Below, in pieces: positions 6,310 to 23,350 of a stretch of 64,000 bases of DNA. The notes beneath the pieces were generated by a model that searched no databases, was not told the DNA's origin, and saw nothing but the letters and a program-made list of their open reading frames with translations. The stretch covers positions 62,001-126,000 of the forward strand of contig JBAJFG010000294.1 of assembly GCA_037903475.1 (NCBI GenBank). The letters run 5' to 3'. A program made the position numbers and the translations under genes. The first letter of the stretch is position 1. The number at the start of each line of letters is the position of its first letter. The stretch comes from Ancylostoma caninum (lineage: Eukaryota > Nematoda > Chromadorea > Rhabditida > Ancylostomatidae).

Positions 6310-6321
6310 AACATCAGTATA
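6310..6321 (+). repeat. Target-site duplication, left copy (PLE composite)
   Basis: The 12-mer AACATCAGTATA lies directly outside the left end of the composite PLE and matches 12401-12412 exactly. Confidence 0.85.
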
Positions 6322-8644
6322 TTGTGGATTGTTCTATTGCAGCCGAACACGAGATTGTTAATGACTTTATTAGGCTGACGTTTCGGCGAGTTCGCCTTCT
6401 TCAGAGCCTGAAAGGGCGAATTCGATTGCAAGCTATTCGGCCAAACGCCTCCGCAAACCTACGGAGAAACATTCTAAGCCTAATTTTTGGCCACAGGAAC
6501 ACGAGCTAACGAAAAAACCGTACCTTATTGGCGATCCACAAGGTGGGGGCGTTGGGTGCGACTACGGGGTGTTCACCTAGGGCGCTTAAGTACCTACTGT
6601 AGGTCAAAACAATAGGCCGAAGTAAGGTGAGAGCTCCCGCGTGATTTGAAGGCACTCGTCTTTCCGATTCATTTTTGGATTTCGAGCGTGGATCCAAAAC
6701 GCCTCTAAAGTTTTGCGAGCTGCTACCTGGGTCTCTTGCGCTAGGATCTTGACCGATACATCAAAATCGGCTCCGTGGTGATGTTCTACGCGATGACTAC
6801 CCAGAGCAGAAGAAGGACGCGATCTGGTTTTTGCATCCAAGTGTTCCTTAATGCGCACGCATAGAAGCCTAGCCGTTTCTCCTATGTATTCGTAGCCACA
6901 CTCATTGCAGGAGATCAGGTATATTGCACCTGAAATCATGCAATCTCCCTCACTGCCACCTGGGCAAATTTTGCAGTCAGGGGTGGGGCAGAGGCGATCA
7001 TAAAGGCGATTACGCACTAGCATGCGCTTAAGATTGCTAGGGGGTATTTCAACCACAGCAACTGTGTTTTCTAGCTGAGTTTTCCTCAGGCACTGCCGAA
7101 TGGCAGCGCTTACCTCATCGGAAATAAAAGGAACACAAAATGGAATCTTTTCGAACGCAGAGCGGGTCTCCCTTTGTCGATTGTGTCCCGTTTTCCGCCT
7201 CCATTTAAAGTCTATAGGCTTGTACCCGTTGGAAATTGCTATTTGGCGAGCTAGCCCAGTGATTCCCTCTTTTCCTCTCTACCACTGCAAACGTGTGCTG
7301 CCGTGCGAAACATGTTGGTAACCACTGACCTTTTTGTGTAACTTGGATGAGCTGACCAATAGTTAACTATGATATTTTTGTTACTAGGTTTCCGATACCA
7401 TTTAGTTACGTGAGTCCCTCGTGAAAGGTGCACTTGTACGTTAAGGAATGGAAGCCAGCCACCCTCGGGTACCTCCCGTGTAAGTTTAATGAACTCTGAC
7501 TGCTCGTTCAGCAACTGAAAACATTTGTCCAACTCCTCTTGTGTGGAGCAGACAATGAAACAGTCGTCAATATATCTGCAGTAGAGTAAGGGACGGGATT
7601 CTAGAACGGGTTTTTCAATTTTGGCCATGAACGCGATGGCAAGAGTTGGTGCCAGTCTTTGGCCCATAGCCAGCCCCCTGGTCTGTGCGAAATAGTTACC
7701 GGACCATCTGAAAATTGTGCACTTTAAGCACTCTTTGAGCAAAGCCACCAGCTGCTCGATGGAGAAACCGAACAGGTTAATGCTAGTGCTGTACTCAGTA
7801 AGAAGCTCGAAGATCGCTTGTATAGCAGAGTCGTTGGAGACGTTGGTGTACAGTGATGTCACGTCAAATGACTCCATTACACAACCGCTACCAAAACTTG
7901 TGTTGCGCAAGTGGTCTAGGAACATTTGCGTGTTACTAAGGTGAGCTGGTATGAATCGCAACAACTGACTTAACACCAGATTTAGAAACCATGCAATTCT
8001 GTCCGTAGGGCCTCCCACACTGCTAATAATAGGTCTGACCTTAAAAGTGGCAGGGTTATTTGAAGCTAAGTCCTTGCTATCAGAGATTTTGTGAGTTTTG
8101 ATAAGCAAATAAAGGACAGGGCATACCGGTAGCTCAATTTTGAGACGCGAGATAATAGAGGGAGACAACCCAGCTGTTTTTGCGATTCTAGCCCACTCCC
8201 TGTTTAGCCTGCGATGCTGTGTTAAAAATTCCTCAGCGCTGGACGTACGGTATAGCGATGCATCTTCAAGATGGCGTCGTGTAATCGCTTCGTCCAACTG
8301 CCTGGGAATAACCACAAATTCCCCTCCTTTGTCACTGGTGGACAATCTTATTGCTCTGGAACGGACTAGATCGCGCACTTGTTTGACACCGCACCGCTGC
8401 TCGTACGTTAAATTAGGGCTCAGTCTCCGTTGTCGAAAGCGATTGATGACCTTCAACAACTCGTCTGAGAAGAGGCGGAAACTAATGTCAACTGCAATAT
8501 TAGGTTCCTGTTGTTTGAAAAAGCTATTAGGGAAAGGAATGCTAGCGAATGTGCGCTGCTGTTGCTGTGGATTTCCCAAGGCCTCCTGTTTTGCTTTAAT
8601 ACGAAGCCGATCCTGAAGTTCTTGTAAACCACACACAAATTTAC
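6322..8644 (-). pseudogene. Inverted, 5'-truncated PLE copy (RT + GIY-YIG), frameshifted
   Basis: Reading on the minus strand, the frame enters at the truncation point (about 8644, at the KFVCGLQ-encoding segment) and runs through the RT core. Motif A is FDVTSLYTNV, the GQRLAPT motif follows, and the catalytic YIDD is near 7575. The frame stops at 7251 because one T is missing near 7260 (CTGGG where the plus copy has CTTGGG). The next frame continues to 6604 and carries the Cys-rich linker (CPTPDCKICPGG) and the GIY-YIG domain (YLISCNECGYEYIGET). The 3' region with the hammerhead-like fold follows down to 6322. Homopolymer-length assembly error could explain the single-base shift. Confidence 0.85.
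6372..6409 (-). ncRNA. Hammerhead-ribozyme-like motif in PLE 3' region (inverted copy)
   Basis: The minus strand reads AGGCT, CTGAAGA, a GGCG/CGCC stem, GAAAC, GTC, AGCCT. This matches the type I hammerhead order: stem I strand, CUGANGA core, stem II, GAAA, very short stem III, cleavage triplet GUC, stem I return. There is one extra base between the CUGANGA box and stem II. AATAAA-like sequence follows within about 10 nt. Confidence 0.65.
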
Positions 8645-9084
8645 CCCCTAGCAATCTTAAGCGCATGCTAGTGCGTAATCGCCCTTATGATCGCCTCTGC
8701 CCCACCCCTGACTGCAAAATTTGCCCAGGTGGCAGTGAGGGAGATTGCATGATTTGAGGTGCAATATACCTGATCTCCTGCAATGAGTGTGGCTACGAAT
8801 ACATAGGAGAAACGGCTAGGCCTCTATGCGTGCGCATTAAGGAACACTTGGATGCAAAAAGCAGATCGCGTCCTTCTTCTGCTCTGGGTAGTCATCGCGT
8901 AGAACATCACCACGGAGCCGATTTTGATGTATCGGTCAAGATCCTAGCGCAAGAGACCCAGGTAGCAGCTCGCAAAACTTTAGAGGCGTTTTGGATCCAC
9001 GCTCGAAATCCAAAAATGAATCGGAAAGACGAGTGCCTTCAAATCACGCGGGAGCTCTCACCTTACTTCGGCCTATTGTTTTGA
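8645..9084 (+). pseudogene. Partial PLE 3' copy (GIY-YIG region), with nonsense change
   Basis: This plus-strand fragment repeats the last 440 coding bases of the full unit (compare 11634-12073). A TCA codon is TGA here (8755-8757), a single C-to-G change, which splits the GIY-YIG domain between the YLISC segment and its upstream Cys-rich region. The downstream part is open from 8758 to the stop at 9084. It is the upstream partner of the full unit in the partial tandem (the pseudo-LTR arrangement described for PLEs) and is not expected to give an active protein by itself. Confidence 0.85.
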
Positions 9085-9278
9085 CCTACAGTAGGTACTT
9101 AAGCGCCCTAGGTGAACACCCCGTAGTCGCACCCAACGCCCCCACCTTGTGGATCGCCAATAAGGTACGGTTTTTTCGTTAGCTCGTGGTCCTGTGACCA
9201 AAAATTAGGCTTAGAATGTTTCTCCGTAGGTTTGCGGAGGCGTTTGGCCGAATAGCTTGCAATCGAATTCGCCCTTTC

Positions 9279-9316
9279 AGGCTCTGAAGAAGGCGAACTC
9301 GCCGAAACGTCAGCCT
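9279..9316 (+). ncRNA. Hammerhead-ribozyme-like motif, first pseudo-LTR
   Basis: AGGCT at 9279-9283 pairs with AGCCT at 9312-9316 (stem I). CTGAAGA occupies 9284-9290, stem II is GGCG/CGCC inside 9291-9303, GAAAC follows at 9304-9308, and GTC ends at 9311 as the predicted cleavage site. Hammerhead motifs in PLE terminal regions are established in the literature; activity here is inferred. The stem III of A-U and C-G without a loop suggests it would act as a dimer, which the tandem copies could supply. Confidence 0.7.
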
Positions 9317-9380
9317 AATAAAGTCATTAACAATCTCGTGTTCGGCTGCAATAGAACAATCCACAATCTGCCAGTCTACA

Positions 9381-12073
9381 ATGCCGAGATTCATCGAGAG
9401 TCGAACATGGCGACTACTACGCAACGTTCCAGCCAGATACTTCCGACTCGTGAGAGAAACATTGTCGCTAAGACAGAAGATCGTCTTGGCCAGACAATCG
9501 ATCCACTTCCTTCGGCGATGTCTCAATCATCGTGTGGTGCCAAACTTCATAGAACGAAAACGACTCAGCGATCTATGTGGCAGACCAGAAAACGACCAAC
9601 GAGTGTTGAGCGTCGAACTGCGCCTCCTTCGCACATGCATTCGAACGAAACAAGACGAAATGTTTGCCAATGTCAGAAAATGTCAATGGAAAGAAGAATG
9701 TTGTTCAAAGTTTCTCGAGGAGCGCCTTTGGAGGAGGATAGTGGGTGGGTCGATTTCGATTTGCGACTCTATTCGCTCTAAGACCAAAACTGACTTGCGA
9801 AGAAAATTCGACTGTCTTTTGAGTAGGTCACGCAGCCATACTGAGCAACGCCGTAGTTCCGTACCCTGTTTTGATCAGTGTGCGAACGAAAAGGGTGTCA
9901 TAGGGCAGATCACACCTACTGAATCCAGAGTGACCGTGTTGGGAGGCATCTCAATACCAGACAGCGCGCGATCAGTACTCAATCTAGGCCCTAGTTTTTC
10001 GCCGTCGCAGCCTATCTCTACCTGGGTTTTGCGTAAATTTGTGTGTGGTTTACAAGAACTTCAGGATCGGCTTCGTATTAAAGCAAAACAGGAGGCCTTG
10101 GGAAATCCACAGCAACAGCAGCGCACATTCGCTAGCATTCCTTCCCTAATAGCTTTTTCAAACAACAGGAACCTAATATTGCAGTTGACATTAGTTTCCG
10201 CCTCTTCTCAGACGAGTTGTTGAAGGTCATCAATCGCTTTCGACAACGGAGACTGAGCCCTAATTTAACGTACGAGCAGCGGTGCGGTGTCAAACAAGTG
10301 CGCGATCTAGTCCGTTCCAGAGCAATAAGATTGTCCACCAGTGACAAAGGAGGGGAATTTGTGGTTATTCCCAGGCAGTTGGACGAAGCGATTACACGAC
10401 GCCATCTTGAAGATGCATCGCTATACCGTACGTCCAGCGCTGAGGAATTTTTAACACAGCATCGCAGGCTAAACAGGGAGTGGGCCAGAATCGCAAAAAC
10501 AGCTGGGTTGTCTCCCTCTATTATCTCGCGTCTCAAAATTGAGCTACCGGTATGCCCTGTCCTTTATTTGCTTATCAAAACTCACAAAATCTCTGATAGC
10601 AAGGACTTAGCTTCAAATAACCCTGCCACTTTTAAGGTCAGACCTATTATTAGCAGTGTGGGAGGCCCTACGGACAGAATTGCATGGTTTCTAAATCTGG
10701 TGTTAAGTCAGTTGTTGCGATTCATACCAGCTCACCTTAGTAACACGCAAATGTTCCTAGACCACTTGCGCAACACAAGTTTTGGTAGCGGTTGTGTAAT
10801 GGAGTCATTTGACGTGACATCACTGTACACCAACGTCTCCAACGACTCTGCTATACAAGCGATCTTCGAGCTTCTTACTGAGTACAGCACTAGCATTAAC
10901 CTGTTCGGTTTCTCCATCGAGCAGCTGGTGGCTTTGCTCAAAGAGTGCTTAAAGTGCACAATTTTCAGATGGTCCGGTAACTATTTCGCACAGACCAGGG
11001 GGCTGGCTATGGGCCAAAGACTGGCACCAACTCTTGCCATCGCGTTCATGGCCAAAATTGAAAAACCCGTTCTAGAATCCCGTCCCTTACTCTACTGCAG
11101 ATATATTGACGACTGTTTCATTGTCTGCTCCACACAAGAGGAGTTGGACAAATGTTTTCAGTTGCTGAACGAGCAGTCAGAGTTCATTAAACTTACACGG
11201 GAGGTACCCGAGGGTGGCTGGCTTCCATTCCTTAACGTACAAGTGCACCTTTCACGAGGGACTCACGTAACTAAATGGTATCGGAAACCTAGTAACAAAA
11301 ATATCATAGTTAACTATTGGTCAGCTCATCCAAGTTACACAAAAAGGTCAGTGGTTACCAACATGTTTCGCACGGCAGCACACGTTTGCAGTGGTAGAGA
11401 GGAAAAGAGGGAATCACTTGGGCTAGCTCGCCAAATAGCAATTTCCAACGGGTACAAGCCTATAGACTTTAAATGGAGGCGGAAAACGGGACACAATCGA
11501 CAAAGGGAGACCCGCTCTGCGTTCGAAAAGATTCCATTTTGTGTTCCTTTTATTTCCGATGAGGTAAGCGCTGCCATTCGGCAGTGCCTGAGGAAAACTC
11601 AGCTAGAAAACACAGTTGCTGTGGTTGAAATACCCCCTAGCAATCTTAAGCGCATGCTAGTGCGTAATCGCCCTTATGATCGCCTCTGCCCCACCCCTGA
11701 CTGCAAAATTTGCCCAGGTGGCAGTGAGGGAGATTGCATGATTTCAGGTGCAATATACCTGATCTCCTGCAATGAGTGTGGCTACGAATACATAGGAGAA
11801 ACGGCTAGGCCTCTATGCGTGCGCATTAAGGAACACTTGGATGCAAAAACCAGATCGCGTCCTTCTTCTGCTCTGGGTAGTCATCGCGTAGAACATCACC
11901 ACGGAGCCGATTTTGATGTATCGGTCAAGATCCTGGCGCAAGAGACCCAGGTAGCAGCTCGCAAAACTTTAGAGGCGTTTCGGATCCACGCTCGAAATCC
12001 AAAAATGAATCGGAAAGACGAGTGCCTTCAAATCACGCGGGAGCTCTCACCTTACTTCGGCCTATTGTTTTGA
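9381..12073 (+). CDS. Penelope-like element protein: reverse transcriptase with GIY-YIG endonuclease (one frameshift)
   Basis: The frame opens at the ATG 13 nt into the unit (MPRFIESRTW) and would encode about 897 residues if one frameshift is ignored. One T is missing at about 10141-10144 (CCTTCCC, where the inverted copy has CCTTTCCC), so the first frame ends at 10223 and the main frame is open from before 10217 to 12073. Domains in order: N-terminal region; RT with FDVTSLYTNV (motif A), MGQRLAPTLA (motif B) and YIDD (motif C, near 11100); Cys-rich CPTPDCKICPGG linker; GIY-YIG nuclease with YLISC, YIGET and the R of LCVRIKEHL. PLEs use this enzyme for target-primed integration. The shift is in a homopolymer, so a sequencing or assembly error must be considered. 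Codon frame is otherwise clean, which supports a recently active element. Confidence 0.85.
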
Positions 12074-12267
12074 CCTACAGTAGGTACTTAAGCGCCCTAG
12101 GTGAACACCCCGTAGTCGCACCCAACGCCCCCACCTTGTGGATCGCCAATAAGGTACGGTTTTTTCGTTAGCTCGTGGTCCTGTGACCAAAAATTAGGCT
12201 TAGAATGTTTCTCCGTAGGTTTGCGGAGGCGTTTGGCCGAATAGCTTGCAAACGAATTCGCCCTTTC

Positions 12268-12305
12268 AGGCTCTGAAGAAGGCGAACTCGCCGAAACGTC
12301 AGCCT
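12268..12305 (+). ncRNA. Hammerhead-ribozyme-like motif, second pseudo-LTR
   Basis: Same organisation as the copy at 9279-9316: AGGCT (12268-12272), CTGAAGA (12273-12279), GGCG/CGCC stem, GAAAC, GTC ending at 12300, AGCCT (12301-12305). AATAAAG follows at 12306, so self-cleavage and polyadenylation signals are side by side about 200 nt after the stop codon. Confidence 0.7.
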
Positions 12306-12400
12306 AATAAAGTCATTAACAATCTCGTGTTCGGCTGCAAAAGAACAATCCACAATCTGCCAGTCTACAATGCCGAGATTCATCGAGAGTCGAACATGGC

Positions 12401-12412
12401 AACATCAGTATA
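12401..12412 (+). repeat. Target-site duplication, right copy (PLE composite)
   Basis: AACATCAGTATA directly follows the 44-nt PLE tail and matches 6310-6321. Confidence 0.85.
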
Positions 12413-14842: not shown

Positions 14843-14965
14843 TAAAAGGAAAGCAGATCCCAAGTTCGACTCTCTTTAAATCTTGGCATTATTATACTCT
14901 AGTGACGTATTTCTTTTTCTAGCTGTTTTTTGCCCAGATTGTTATAATTCTTTATTCTCCACTTC

Positions 14966-15001
14966 GGCTAACGTTTCGGCGATGTCGCCTTCGTCAGAGC
15001 C
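14966..15001 (-). ncRNA. Hammerhead-ribozyme-like motif (inverted copy in small PLE)
   Basis: The minus strand reads GGCT, CTGACGA, a GGCG/CGCC stem, GAAAC, GTT, AGCC. It mirrors the plus-strand motif at 15453-15488. Confidence 0.6.
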
Positions 15002-15259
15002 TGGAAGTCGAAGGCAACATTTATGCCCATCCTCTCAAACGCCTCATCGCATTGGAGAACACAGTTCAGTCAAAAGGCAAATCAAAAACCATAACCATCA
15101 TTCGATTATGGCACACTAACGAGTTGGCCTTGTATCACAATCTTTGCGGATTCTGATTCGATTATGGCAGAGATGAGCGTATTACTATCACTAACGAGTT
15201 GGCCTTGTATCACAATCTTTGCGGATTCTGATTCGATTATGGCAGATTGTTAAGGCACA

Positions 15260-15266
15260 CTATAAA
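15260..15266 (+). promoter_or_regulatory. TATA box inside the small PLE
   Basis: TATAAAA followed by GGCAG, about 190 bp upstream of the hammerhead-like motif and downstream of the two tandem repeats. It is placed as expected for an internal pseudo-LTR promoter; function is inferred. Confidence 0.4.
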
Positions 15267-15452
15267 AGGCAGTAGGAGTACAGTTTCCGGCAATTGCGGT
15301 CTGCCTTTCTACCATCTCTACTGCAGCAAAGGTGAGCACTGGCCGGCTGTGTGTGCTTCGTTGTGTTTTTGATTTGCCTTTTGACTGAACTGTGTTCTCC
15401 AATGCGATGAGGCGTTTGAGAGGATGGGCATAAATGTTGCCTTCGACTTCCA

Positions 15453-15488
15453 GGCTCTGACGAAGGCGACATCGCCGAAACGTTAGCC
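15453..15488 (+). ncRNA. Hammerhead-ribozyme-like motif (small PLE)
   Basis: GGCT (15453-15456) pairs with AGCC (15485-15488). CTGACGA is at 15457-15463, stem II is GGCG/CGCC, GAAAC is at 15477-15481, and GTT (15482-15484) is the predicted cleavage triplet. The core differs from the full PLE copy at N7 and at the cleavage base but keeps both stems. Confidence 0.65.
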
Positions 15489-15569
15489 GAAGTGGAGAAT
15501 AAAGAATTATAACAATCTGGGCAAAAAACAGCTAGAAAAAGAAATACGTCACTAGAGTAAAAGGAAAGC

Positions 15570-17514: not shown

Positions 17515-17517
17515 TTA

Positions 17518-18659
17518 GGCTGCCGCTATACTCCTCGAGGAGTATAGCACCCAGCATTGCCGTCGCCAAAGTTTGGCGATCGCCCATCGCTAAAGATTGG
17601 CGATCGCCCGTCGCTAAAGATTGGCGATCGCCAGTCGCAAGAGTTTGGCGATCGCCCGTCGCTAAAGATTGGCGATCGCCAATCGTCGAAAAGTACCGAC
17701 GATGGCGACTGCACAACGTTGGCGACGAAGCGCATAAGTCTTCAATTTCCGGATTTCGCTTTAATTTCACTTATTTATTTGCTATATACTGATGAAAGAA
17801 TTGGTGAGACATCACATTCGGGCTGCTGTAGTCCGACATGGACCTAAAAACAAGTAATATTCCTCTCAGCTCAATGGATTATGTATTTCCATAACCTGCC
17901 AGTGTTTCCACAATTTTAATACAAAATCTCCAAAGTTCAGAAATTTGCAGGAAACACTAAAAAGTTGCTTTAACAGTGAGAGTGAAAGAAACAAAAAGGA
18001 AGGAATAGTAATGATTGAGCGAGTGAAGTAGATGTAATCTCCATAATAACGAAATCTTATTGGTTATTTTGAAAGGGGTAATAGAAAATAACCAAAAAAA
18101 TTAGCTTCTACAATATCTATATCAATTCCTTAAGACATTTTTTGGGTACGTGTCTATATCTGTCAATTGTTCACTTCTTGGAAGAGTCGAGAGAACGTTG
18201 GCCTCCCTCCTTTCACGAAAGAGTTTTCGTTGTTACGTTATCAGTAGGGACACTGGAAAAAGTTATCGGAGTCTCATCGCACATTCTGCGCGATGAAATT
18301 CTCAGTTCTTCGGAAATGGATGCGGATATGTTTGCACGTCCCAATATTTTGTTTGAAAGAAGTAGGAGTAAAAAGCAAGCGGTTTCTGAAAAATTGAAGA
18401 CCTAGGCGCTCCGTCGCCAAGGTTTTCCGGTCGCCATCGTCGATGTTTCTCGAAGATGGGCGATCGCCAAACTTTGGCGACTGGCGATCGCCAAACTTTA
18501 GCGATGTAGCGTCGCGAGGAGTATAGCACCCCTCTAGCGATGTATCATTGTCGACGATAATCGCCAGAGTTCTCATCGCGATCCTCCCACAATCAATATG
18601 TATCAGAAATGAAGTCGCCAATCTAGGTGCTATACTCCTCGAGGAGTATAGCGGCAGCC
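17518..18659. mobile_element. Harbinger-like foldback element, TTA target duplication
   Basis: Terminal inverted repeats of about 35 bp start GGCTGCCGCTATACTCC and end with the exact inverse. Each TIR contains the palindrome CTATACTCCTCGAGGAGTATAG in its outer part (about 17527-17548 and 18632-18653). TTA flanks both ends (17515-17517, 18660-18662), as in PIF/Harbinger elements. Inside each end, short repeats built on TTGGCGATCGCC appear several times (17574-17685 and 18450-18500). No transposase frame was found in the 1.14-kb unit. Confidence 0.75.
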
Positions 18660-19047
18660 TTACGACCTGCACTTGATAATGACTGCTTTAATCCATTGTA
18701 AGGATGATTGGACTCATCGCTTGTTAATTATTGGAAGTCCGGTGCTTTACTTGCTCGGCTATTCTTTCTGAGCTGGCATGAGTTCTTATTTCCCCACTCT
18801 CGTGGAAAGTAGCATTATCATGCATCTTTAGAGGGATTGATTCTCGGCAAGAGACGTGCAAAAGTCTTCATGCAAGAAACTCCGAACAGCCTGTGGCGCG
18901 GAGTAGCACTCTGGTCGTCTGTTATACTCCTCAACCGATAATGCTTTCATCGTGCTCTCTGATACTCCTTATTCAACTTTGCCGCGCCACGTTACTGATC
19001 ACCGTATTCACCTGGAATTTTGTAATTCCTCGTAGGTGCCAGGTATA

Positions 19048-19269: not shown

Positions 19270-19699
19270 TATAACGTCAATTAGATTGCGCCACTCATCA
19301 CTCGTTAACTCACGTTGATGTATATCATCTTAGGTTAACGAGTGATATAGGCACTGCTCCCCAATACGCATGGTGTAATGGTAGCTGACGCCCCCCTCCA
19401 GTTGGCATAATGGCACAAACGGCATCACGTTGGTGGTTATCGATATGTGCTAGCTCCTGCTGTTCATTCTTTGTTTTCATTCTGATTCACAATCATTGAT
19501 TCAGTACGGAATCCAAAAATGAACAACAGGAACAAGCAGACGGCGATAGCCAACGAATTTCTCCCATTTGTGCCGTTATATGAGCCATAAAATCGTCATT
19601 AATAGCATGGGCTGAGCAATGCTCAACCATCCGCTACTGACAATGATGCGGATAAACCTTCCGTTTCTTGGTGTTATACGTTCTGAATTGGTCTTCCAC

Positions 19700-20346
19700 G
19701 TCTGGTGTTTACTGTTAGCTAGTTGAGATGAACCGAATGCACACTTCAGGAGATAGTGTTCCGAAGGAAATATGCATACGAGCTCTAATATCTATGTACA
19801 GTTTGGGTCTGGTAATGCCTTCAGTCTCTATCACTTCAGAACATCTTTCAACAATACCAGCGAAAAGTTCATTCCATAACGGTGACGAGGTTTTTTTGGT
19901 GGAACTTTTATTCGGTCTGACGTTTCGGTTTCTATCGCCGTCCTCAGAGGGCTGCAAAGAGGTTGGTATGAGAAATCTAGCGTGTAGTCCGCCAAGCATC
20001 TCTCAATCCTGTGCTGGAATCTCGATATTCTCCAAAGCACAGAATGCAGAAACCTCACACTGTCAAAAGCTGGCCCACCCGTTGCTCCACCGATGATGGC
20101 GGTGTCACCGCACAAGACTGCCGAACTAGGAAGAGTGAGTATCGCCATGTGTATACATGAGTGGTGGTAGGCAGTATGCGAGATCTACGCAGGCAGTATC
20201 AGGCAGTTTATAGCTCACAAAGTGGCACGAACGGCATGAATTCATTCGTAATCGATAAGCACTCATTTTTGTTATTCATCGGAGGACTCCGGACGGATAT
20301 CCAGAATGCTTCCAATGTCTTACGTGCTGATAAATCTGTCTCGCGA
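19700..20346 (-). pseudogene. Old PLE copy, 3' part (end of GIY-YIG and 3' region)
   Basis: On the minus strand, from 20346 downward, the frame encodes a segment with SARKTLEAFWI and NNKNECLSITNEF, matching AARKTLEAFWI and NRKDECLQITREL of the full PLE. It continues the copy at 21668-23027, which was split by the TIR element at 20347-21665. A hammerhead-like motif at 19914-19952 and an AATAAA-type signal lie further downstream, as expected for the PLE 3' region. The exact end of the element and its target duplication were not found. Confidence 0.75.
19914..19952 (-). ncRNA. Degenerate hammerhead-ribozyme-like motif (old PLE)
   Basis: The minus strand reads CTGAGGA, then a short GG/CC stem II with a large loop, GAAAC and GTC, followed by AATAAAAG. 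Stem I pairing is weak. It corresponds in position to the motifs of the younger PLE copies. Confidence 0.45.
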
Positions 20347-21665
20347 CTCTGAACTTTCGTACCACGGTGGGCCCACCGTTATCCCATGGTTAATGTTCGG
20401 CACGTCAACCATGGGCAAACAGTGGGGCCACCGCGGGCTATTGTTGGGGCCACCCTGGGCTAACTAGGGGATTCACGAGGGGAACCCGGGGGATTTCCGT
20501 GTGGAAACTGTGGGATTTCCGTGGAGAAACTGGGGTATATCCAGGGATTTTCCAGGTTTAATCGGGGTATTTCCGAGGGTTAATCAGGGCACTTCCAGGG
20601 GTTAACCGGGGTAATTCAACAAGTTAGGCGGGGGTCATCATGCTCTTCCGCCTACATTCTCATCGTGTTCTGATCGCCTTTTTCTGGATAAACACCACAT
20701 AACAGCATAGTGATTCATTTCCAACATATTGGCATTTAAAAAACAGTACAATCATGAGTGCAACAGAACAGCAATGTTTCGCGAGAGGAGCGAAACCAAG
20801 GACTTTGCATTTCCATGTGGCCTGAATATGAGCAGGATTTTCATCCATTTGGAACGAACATTTCGGAGGTTATCTACTCATGTGCTTGGACAGGCCTTCT
20901 TCCTCGTGAAGAAGTCAGAAGGGATGTACGATATTTGAGCATTCACGAGTGTCGACTCAATTACTCCTCTTCTAACAATTAGTTACGATATGTGCCCAGT
21001 GACTACGGCAAAGAATACCTAAAAGAGCTAGTACTGAAGTAAGCACTGAAATAAAATCCTCACTTCACCAAGGAGAGTTCGCATCATACTTTTGCTACAA
21101 TCGTTTACGCCGTTTGCCGTGCCGGAGTATCAGAGTTAGTAGAAGTCCAGAGGAACTCACCACAAGCGGGAGAGGAATCGGATGAATAGATTGGAACCAG
21201 CAAACACAATGAACGATAATGTTTTCATCAAATACCTATGTCATTCTGCAAACACGCTCCCGCTGGGCAGGTCTTTAGATGAGGTTAAGGTGGGCGAATG
21301 GTGGGCCTTTGGTGGTTAAAACGGGGGGCGGGGGGGGGGGGTAAGGAGGAATTGGGATAGGTGGGATAACGGTGGGCAAATGGTGCGCAAAAGATAGTTC
21401 AATTGTGGAAAAAACGGGATCGTGAGCTAACAGTGGGCAAAGGGTGGGCAAACGGAGGTTTCACCGTGGGTTGTCCAAGCACGGTGGGCCCACCGTGGGG
21501 AAATGGTGGGTGCACCTTGAGAGTGATAACAACGGTGGGCTAACGGTGGGATAAGTGGGGAGGATACCATAATCGAGGGATAACCGGGGGAAACGGTGGG
21601 CCCACCTTCGGTTGGGGGTCCACCGTGGGATAACGGTGGGCCCACCGTGGTACGAAAGTTCAGAG
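20347..21665. mobile_element. 1.3-kb TIR element inserted in the old PLE
   Basis: The left end CTCTGAACTTTCGTACCACG and right end are exact inverses, extended by ACGGTGGGCCCACCG-type repeats for about 300 bp at each end. GA flanks both sides (20345-20346 and 21666-21667). Removing the element together with one GA rejoins the PLE reading frame (ILA followed by RETDLSARK), which confirms the boundaries. No transposase was recognised; the open frames at 21427-21682 are repeat reads. Confidence 0.75.
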
Positions 21666-21667
21666 GA

Positions 21668-23027
21668 GCTAGAATTGTGCATTTCACGCCGAAGTCCATT
21701 CCGCGGTGTGTCTCATTCTTGTTCCTCCCAAGCGGTGTCATCAAGCTTCCGCGCTGTTTCCCTGCCAGGCGTTCCCCAATCCTTACTCCCAAACTTCTTC
21801 CCGTCTCTCTATTGTATGTTGCGTTGCATGTCATGCATTGTATTTGGTAAATAACTCCCGCTTGTGCGCAGCCGCTCGTTCTACCATATGGACATACTAT
21901 ACATCCTTCAGAGATACAGTTCCTATCGTATAGTTTGTTTCGAACAAACTGACTTTTTATGTTACTGTTGGGAATATTTACTAGTCTTACATCGTTCCGT
22001 AGTTGTGCTCGGACAATGCAGCGCCGTACAGCGGCACTTACGTCGTCAGATATGAATGGAAGGCAAAGAGACAGTTTATTTTGTCGCGAGATATTGCTGC
22101 TCTTAACATGGACCAACTATAACGCGGTAACACTGTATAGCCATTAGCTACAGCAATCTCCAGCGCGAGACTGCGGGACTCCTGTCGCTCATGATCCCCA
22201 GTGCACAGTTCACTTGCCGTTTTGAACATGTTAAAAATGACTGCGCGCTTCATAGCCATCGAGTGCGCCGATCGGGCATGTATCAGGATGTTCTTACAAC
22301 TGTCTTCGCGGTACCATTTTACTCTGATGTTGCCTCTCAATAAGTCGATTTAGTGTTGAGGAAGGGGAGCCAGCCGTTTCGTGGTTTCTCTCGTGTAAGC
22401 CTTATGTACTGCGACTGCTGGTTTAGTATGCGGAAACAATCGTCTATTTCGGACTGTGTTGATGTAATAACACAGCAGTCATCGATGTATCTGCAGTACA
22501 GAATTAGAAGACGAGCTAGCACTGGCGCTTCAATCCTGCTCATGAAGCAGATCGCCAGTATCGGTGCCAGTCGCTGACCCATTGCTAGATCTCTCACTTG
22601 AGCGAATTACATGCCAGACCACTTGAAGATATTACAGTTGAGGCATTCATCGACGAGAGTGAGTAAACGCGCTTTGCTCAACCCATATGTTTCCACACAA
22701 GCGGCGTGTACGTTGAGCATTTCGGATATAGCCTGTAGAGCCTCGCTATTTTGCACGTTAATGTGTAACGAGGTTACATCAAAGGACTCTACCGCGCAGT
22801 TACTGTCAAATCTCACGCTGTGCAACTATTCAAGGAAGTGGTTTGTATTCGGCAAGTGAGATGGTACTTCGCATAAGATTTGGCTCACGATTTTGGTAAG
22901 AAACCAAGAGATACGGTCAGCTGGCCCTCCTACGCAACTTAAGATTGGCCTGATTTTGTAAGATTCCGCTGACATTGATCGCAAGTCGTCTGTGGTAAGT
23001 TTGTGTGTTTTGATAAGGCTGAGACAA
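21668..23027 (-). pseudogene. Old PLE copy, RT and GIY-YIG start, several frameshifts
   Basis: From about 23027 the minus strand encodes LIKTHKLTTDD and then PLE RT motifs: FDVTSLHINV (motif A), MGQRLAPILA (motif B), YIDD (near 22480), and later the Cys-rich linker plus YQIQCMTCNATYNRETGRSLGVRI. The frame changes at least four times between 23077 and 21668. The element is truncated at its 5' end before the RT fingers region (a T-rich sequence replaces it). The YIGET box of the nuclease reads YNRET here. Confidence 0.8.
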
Positions 23028-23350
23028 CAATAAAAAAATAAAAAAGTCTTTAAAAAATTACAGCAGACTCTAATCAATATACTACGAACATGGGAGAAAC
23101 TATCAAGAAATACGAGATACGAGAAGAGATAGTTCTCACTAAGAAACTCAGCGCTTCACATGGAACGGGAAAATTGCTCGATCGGCATGCATGAGTTTTA
23201 AGACCCTAAAAACCCAAACTCAGGCAAAATCTCATGCATGAGGGTTTGAGCGGGTGCTGCCTTCGACACATATTGCAGAGAAATCTTTGTGTCACGCTTC
23301 ACTGACAGACTCAGTGCAGAATCTTGAATTGGCTATACTTCCTCGAAGAG

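What the first reader, a model, noticed from the sequence alone, without database searches (positions are those of the whole stretch)
14843..15569. Tiny non-autonomous PLE sharing the coding start of the full element
The 727-bp unit has no enzyme gene but has a TATA box, repeats, hammerhead-like motif, poly(A)-type signal, 12-bp duplication and a one-sided tail encoding MPRF-x-ESRTW like the full PLE. So the tail end includes the ATG region of a longer, so far unseen parent. It could be a small PLE-dependent family.
Basis: partly seen in the sequence, partly recalled or inferred. Interest (0 to 1): 0.75.

Follow-up and report, generated by a model that had tools for sequence, protein, structure and literature searches.

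The report
Short stub of a Penelope retrotransposon
This short stretch of roundworm-like DNA looks like a heavily shortened insertion of a Penelope-type jumping gene: it still carries the last and the first few codons of the missing enzyme gene, which marks it as a copying remnant rather than proof of a new small family.

Summary
14843-15569 is a 703-bp insert between exact 12-bp duplications. It has two head-to-head arms, identical over 195 bp, each with a minimal hammerhead motif. One end runs 35 nt into an ORF reading MPRFKESRTWD, like strongylid-nematode Penelope-like (PLE) proteins and the PLE at 6322-12400.

One correction: the unit is not free of enzyme gene. The direct arm's repeat encodes the PLE C-terminus (DERITITNELALYHNLCGF-stop, partly duplicated). 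So the unit joins the end of the parent ORF, its pLTR and its start.

The family reading is weakened. In the anole PLE (PMC11167929) both nicked strands prime reverse transcription at two sites inside the ORF start, giving the known "tail" at one end. Both two-armed PLE insertions here have one short end (7 or 14 nt before the ATG) and one long end (+35 or +31 nt), with swapped polarity. The large one joins arms of arbitrary length at 3-nt microhomology.

Best reading: a 5'-truncated, two-armed dead-end copy of an unseen sibling PLE. Copy number stayed uncounted: the genome search failed 16 of 16 times.

The parts
14843..14854 (.). left target-site duplication TAAAAGGAAAGC
15558..15569 (.). 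right target-site duplication, identical (its first two bases TA also fit the element end, so the end is 15557-15559)
14855..15089 (-). inverted arm (235 nt): 3' part of the pLTR plus ORF start; carries the long end
14855..14889 (-). first 35 nt of the parent PLE ORF, reading MPRFKESRTWD
14855..14896 (-). 42-nt 'tail' between the short-end and long-end positions, read as the interval between two reverse-transcription start sites
   Evidence: interpretation from PMC11167929
15089..15100 (.). head-to-head junction of the two arms; a 6-bp inverted repeat CCATAA/TTATGG (15089-15094/15106-15111) spans it
15090..15557 (+). direct arm: end of the parent ORF, stop, pLTR; ends at the short end, 7 nt (or 5) before the ATG position
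15115..15156 (+). first copy of the parent ORF end, TNELALYHNLCGF-stop
15172..15231 (+). second copy of the parent ORF end, DERITITNELALYHNLCGF-stop
15232..15557 (+). pLTR (326 nt; stop to ATG position 333 nt, against 296 nt in the full PLE)
15261..15269 (+). TATA-like box TATAAAAGG
   Evidence: sequence; function not tested
15453..15488 (+). minimal type I hammerhead motif GGCU-CUGACGA-AGGCGACAUCGCC-GAAACGUU^AGCC, direct arm
14966..15001 (-). same hammerhead motif, inverted arm
15498..15503 (+). AATAAA poly(A)-type signal downstream of the hammerhead
6310..12412 (+). comparison: full PLE insertion with 12-bp duplication AACATCAGTATA (6310-6321 / 12401-12412), inverted arm 6322-8644 (short end), direct arm 8642-12400 (long end, +31 nt of ORF), ORF start 9381

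Best explanation
The unit is a 5'-truncated, two-armed insertion of a Penelope-like element, made by the enzyme of a longer sibling family that is not in the window. The PLE protein nicked both target strands 12 bp apart. Each nick primed reverse transcription inside the ORF start of a tandem (or circular) PLE RNA: one at the distal start site (+35 nt in the ORF), the other at the proximal site just before the ATG. One cDNA ran 235 nt; the other ran back through the pLTR into the last codons of the preceding ORF copy, apparently with short template jumps that left the 75-bp duplication, and stopped after about 460 nt. The two were joined head to head, and fill-in of the staggered nicks gave the 12-bp duplication. 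The MPRF peptide is the scar of the start site. The unit lacks nearly all of the ORF and is probably a dead end. Shown: anatomy, ends, duplications, homology at both ORF ends, the same architecture in the neighbouring PLE. Inferred: the order of steps, the template form, the jumps and the dead-end status.
For: Exact duplications flush with both ends; arms identical over 195 bp. The direct arm carries the parent ORF end and stop 29 nt before the TATA-like box, so ORF end, pLTR and ORF start follow each other as in a tandem PLE. Long ends at +35 and +31 nt and short ends at -7 and -14 nt in the unit and its neighbour, differences 42 and 45 nt, a little above the published 30-40 bp tail, which in the anole PLE is the interval between two RT start sites, both strands being cut and extended (PMC11167929). 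A rotifer PLE has a 31-bp tail on one of its inverted pLTRs and a 9-bp duplication (PMC3846280 passages). The neighbouring PLE joins a 3759-nt and a 2323-nt arm at arbitrary inner points with 3-nt microhomology. Of the 120 proteins listed, 14 begin MPRF or MPRL in the family pattern.
Against: No second copy and no parent sequence were seen. The mechanism comes from a lizard PLE whose commonest start lies 111-118 nt inside the ORF. Later recombination between two direct pLTRs could leave the same structure. Rfam does not recognise the hammerhead, and the unit's best fold competes with its core. Of the 120 query proteins only 3 reach E 0.01 against the ORF end in the whole-window search.
Confidence: 0.72

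Rival explanations
1. A longer insertion (inverted arm, ORF end, pLTR, ORF, pLTR) came first; recombination between its two direct pLTRs then removed the ORF and one pLTR.
For: The neighbouring PLE has just this order in its direct arm: partial ORF end, pLTR, ORF, pLTR. Solo pLTRs in a rotifer were ascribed to recombination or deletion (PMC3846280). The structure seen is what would remain.
Against: Arms identical over 195 bp leave little time for a second event, and one step suffices. The rotifer solo pLTRs so explained lacked target duplications; this unit has one.
Confidence: 0.17
2. A true non-autonomous family: small elements with their own promoter and ribozyme, mobilised in trans by PLE protein.
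For: The unit keeps a TATA-like box, a hammerhead core and AATAAA. Foreign sequence between pLTRs was moved in trans in a rotifer (PMC3846280); short non-autonomous Penelope elements are reported in butterflies (PMC6685494).
Against: It retains the ORF end, as a truncated copy would. No other copy found in 64 kb. In the anole the template needs the first 172 nt of the ORF (PMC11167929); the unit has 35 nt, on the inverted arm only. Its cleavage site is GUU where the full PLE has GUC (that GUU is slow is recalled).
Confidence: 0.08
3. A foldback or MITE-type DNA transposon unrelated to PLE.
For: Long inverted repeats and a target duplication.
Against: The ends are asymmetric (42 nt on one end only), and PLE ORF start, ORF end and hammerhead are all present.
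Confidence: 0.01

Closest known systems
Endonuclease-bearing Penelope-like elements with inverted pLTR and optional tail (e.g. Pen2a_Av, Adineta vaga; PMC3846280, 12 of 13 passages seen)
   Same: Head-to-head inverted pLTR, direct pLTR reaching the ORF start, 31-bp tail on one of the inverted pLTRs, short target duplication, TATA box in the pLTR, 5'-truncated copies
   Different: The unit keeps only the ends of the ORF. Its short end is just before the ATG, while the A. vaga pLTR already holds 12 codons. Its duplication is 12 bp; the passages give 8-10
Anole Poseidon PAc (PMC11167929, parts 1-3 of 4 read)
   Same: Both strands primed, internal start sites at the ORF start with a tail between them, hammerhead sharing GAAACGUC^AG with the full PLE here
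   Different: Commonest start 111-118 nt into the ORF, and the hammerhead overlaps the ATG there. Here the starts are at about -14/-7 and +31/+35, and the hammerhead lies wholly upstream of the ATG
Metazoan retrozymes (PMC7229834, 12 of 21 passages seen)
   Same: Small, no working protein gene, hammerhead; PLEs proposed as the helper
   Different: Retrozymes are tandem repeats of about 150-450 bp with canonical hammerheads. This is one direct and one inverted arm with a minimal PLE-type hammerhead and PLE ORF ends
Short non-autonomous Penelope elements of heliconiine butterflies (PMC6685494, two passages seen)
   Same: Short and of PLE origin
   Different: An expansion of copies there; one copy known here. 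Their end structure is not given in the passages seen

Membership tests
Penelope-like element insertion | pLTR in direct plus inverted (head-to-head) arrangement | tested here: met
Penelope-like element insertion | tail of some 30-40 bp on one end that continues into the ORF start | tested here: met
   42 nt (slightly longer), MPRFKESRTWD
Penelope-like element insertion | short target-site duplication | tested here: met
   12 bp exact
Penelope-like element insertion | homology to the PLE ORF | tested here: met
   start and C-terminus only
Penelope-like element insertion | active minimal type I hammerhead in the pLTR | tested here: inconclusive
   core and stems present; competing fold; Rfam negative; cleavage not testable
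Penelope-like element insertion | RT plus GIY-YIG ORF in the parent | not testable with these tools
   parent not in the window; the neighbour has RVT_1 (46.9 bits, cut-off 29.6) and weak GIY-YIG (18 bits, cut-off 22.6)
Non-autonomous PLE-dependent family | several dispersed copies of the same short structure | not tested
   The genome search unanswered 16 of 16 times; no other copy in the window
Non-autonomous PLE-dependent family | carries the template region needed by the PLE enzyme (first 172 nt of the ORF in the anole) | tested here: not met
   35 nt present, inverted arm only; the rule is from another PLE
Metazoan retrozyme | tandem direct monomers with a hammerhead in each | tested here: not met
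   one direct and one inverted arm

The most novel reading that the evidence does not exclude
A small hammerhead-bearing family in a strongylid-like nematode that spreads in trans on PLE enzyme, with each insertion built by two cDNAs that obligately use different start sites, so that every copy has one short and one long end.
Probability: 0.06. Interest if true: 0.55.

Novelty: new member of a known kind. Interest (0 to 1): 0.28.

Why it matters
It gives natural insertions in a nematode-like genome that match what was measured in vitro for a lizard PLE: both strands primed, two internal start sites, arms joined head to head. One short and one long end in both two-armed insertions here, with swapped polarity, is a simple prediction to count genome-wide: does each nick use a different start site? 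As an element in its own right the unit is ordinary.

Tried and rejected
Copies elsewhere: the hammerhead pattern in viral contigs gave 0. A PLE protein in viral contigs gave 2 pattern stretches, neither a relative by tblastn. An antisense ORF across the pLTR, used only as bait for mis-annotated copies, gave 1 candidate and no hit. An N-terminal search with P0012 gave 4 proteins, none with the unit's exact peptide (peptides). Two further MPRF-like peptides were rejected: 2239 minus lies in a stretch that looks tRNA-like by eye, and 40155 plus shows no PLE match; of 998 tblastn rows none lies near either.

An earlier tblastn of the unit had printed rows of one query only and hid this. For that reason I moved the odds: best explanation 0.62 to 0.72, family reading 0.13 to 0.08, recombination 0.20 to 0.17, foldback transposon 0.02 to 0.01, novel case 0.10 to 0.06, interest 0.30 to 0.28. 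Foldback DNA transposon: rejected for the PLE homology. Much of the weight against the family reading rests on another species' biochemistry, so it is lowered, not excluded.

Full report
What is there. The unit at 14843-15569 is a 703-bp insert (14855-15557) between exact 12-bp duplications TAAAAGGAAAGC. It has two head-to-head arms: inverted (14855-15089) and direct (15090-15557), identical over 15365-15559 and its mirror. The direct arm holds, in order, a 75-bp-spaced repeat, TATAAAAGG at 15261, a minimal hammerhead motif at 15453-15488 and AATAAA at 15498. The inverted arm repeats the hammerhead part and runs 42 nt further, through an ATG, into 35 nt of ORF reading MPRFKESRTWD.

The repeat is the end of the enzyme gene. 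Read in frame, the direct arm gives TNELALYHNLCGF-stop at 15115-15156 and DERITITNELALYHNLCGF-stop at 15172-15231. PLE proteins end the same way: Ancylostoma ceylanicum P0009 TNELAPFAGLCGF, Necator americanus P0064 TNELAPYQDLCGF. The two copies rank 2nd and 3rd of 3100 stop-preceding 13-mers of the window, after the C-terminus of a third PLE; 49 of the 120 held proteins fitted the pattern used as reference, 41 distinct. In the whole-window tblastn 3 of 120 queries reach E 0.01 there (0.003 to 0.005); against the 1-kb stretch alone the best is 2.9e-5. From stop to ATG position is 333 nt, against 296 nt in the full PLE.

Is the rest more than chance? A 12-mer match has a per-pair chance of 7e-8; 9 occur over all 251 spacings of 600-850. 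The hammerhead descriptor, written after seeing the motifs, finds 5 places, all in the two PLEs, and none in 60 shuffles. The folded stretches of the unit score z -2.99 and -2.72, the full PLE's -2.07; the unit's best fold pairs core bases GACG with CGUU, the full PLE's does not. Rfam finds no hammerhead in either. The MPRF peptide ranks third of 1440 stop-free ATG 11-mers.

Relatives. The RT-EN part of the neighbouring PLE is closest to strongylid nematode proteins: best-ranked A. ceylanicum 67%, N. americanus 64%, Haemonchus contortus 59% identity. Of the 120 proteins listed there, 14 begin MPRF or MPRL in the family pattern; a fifteenth beginning MPR is unrelated there. P0012 (A. ceylanicum) reads MPRFKDSRTWEV. 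The two pLTRs share 45 nt at 87% and 31 nt of ORF start at 84%, so the unit's parent is a different PLE family. The species of the window was not determined.

The neighbour as a control. The full PLE insertion has a 12-bp duplication AACATCAGTATA (6310-6321, 12401-12412). Its direct arm (8642-12400, 3759 nt) ends 31 nt inside the ORF; its inverted arm (6322-8644, 2323 nt) ends 14 nt before the ATG position; they meet with 3 nt of microhomology. The direct arm exceeds the 2989-nt unit length, so its template was tandem or circular. In the small unit the polarity is swapped: long end on the inverted arm (+35), short end on the direct arm (-7). A third, decayed PLE (minus strand, about 19857-23024) has a candidate 8-bp duplication TATTGTTG, no inverted arm seen, and a short-type end; 9 of 83 tblastn rows at its upper end run past the duplication's inner edge, so that boundary is unsure.

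Mechanism. Frangieh et al. 2024 (PMC11167929; parts 1-3 of 4 read) showed for an anole PLE that both strands are cut and extended, that reverse transcription starts internally at two adjacent sites in the ORF start, that the genomic tail is the interval between them, and that the template needs the first 172 nt of the ORF. A 2013 rotifer paper (PMC3846280; passages) describes a 31-bp tail on one of two inverted pLTRs, 5'-truncated copies, solo pLTRs, and foreign sequence moved between pLTRs. On this basis the unit is best read as two short cDNAs from one tandem or circular template, joined head to head; the coding start is a start-site scar and the coding end is where the longer cDNA stopped. 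Steps after cutting are inferred, and so is the origin of the 75-bp duplication by template jumps.

What remains open. Later pLTR-pLTR recombination (0.17) and a trans-mobilised small family (0.08) are not excluded. The decisive genome count could not be made: the genome search did not answer in 16 of 16 tries. Both two-armed insertions with readable ends in this window (2 of 2) have one short and one long end, and the rotifer passage puts the tail on one of the inverted pLTRs; with so few cases this is only a prediction to test.

Novelty. Tails, truncated copies, solo pLTRs and short non-autonomous Penelope elements are in print (PMC3846280; PMC6685494, two passages). Six paper searches showed 20 of 51, 14 of 14, 20 of 72, 15 of 140, 8 of 4878 and 20 of 105 listings; among the titles and abstract starts shown, none concerned such units in strongylid nematodes. 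That covers only an open-licence library and only the rows shown; Craig et al. 2021 was not held. I file the unit as a new member of a known kind.

Noticed in passing
19849-23032 (minus): A third, decayed and 5'-truncated PLE with candidate 8-bp duplication TATTGTTG (23025-23032 / 19849-19856; some alignments run past it), a degenerate hammerhead at 19947-19920 and AATAAA, interrupted by a 1.3-kb inverted-repeat insertion (arms 20339-20390 / 21622-21673).
   Followed up: partly
19399-19587: Old PLE debris: the enzyme C-terminus occurs twice head to head (19501-19584 on +, 19470-19399 on -), inside a 175-nt palindrome of 70% identity, perhaps another old two-armed PLE stub.
   Followed up: partly
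14858-15008 (against P0050): The predicted Necator americanus protein P0050 matches the unit's inverted arm read antisense (residues 24-33 the ORF start, 38-51 the hammerhead), so its gene model seems to run through a similar inverted PLE arm with a long end.
   Followed up: partly
9310-9322, 12299-12311, 15483-15503, 19920-19907: In all three PLEs of the window with a hammerhead, AATAAA starts 7-15 nt after the GAAACGT of the hammerhead, a close coupling that might be worth testing across nematode PLEs.
   Followed up: no
1863-2539: Two 246-bp GC-rich repeats (94% alike) flank a stretch that looks tRNA-like by eye on the minus strand near 2239, which also gave a chance MPRF-like peptide.
   Followed up: no
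17517-18660: A 1.1-kb foldback with 38-bp ends containing the palindrome GCTATACTCCTCGAGGAGTATAGC and arrays of GGCGATCGCC, probably a non-autonomous DNA transposon.
   Followed up: no
6322-12400: The large PLE's ORF is split across frames in both arms (pieces 9288-10223 and 10136-12073 on +; 7251-8684 and 6604-7278 on -), although the arms are 99-100% alike.
   Followed up: partly
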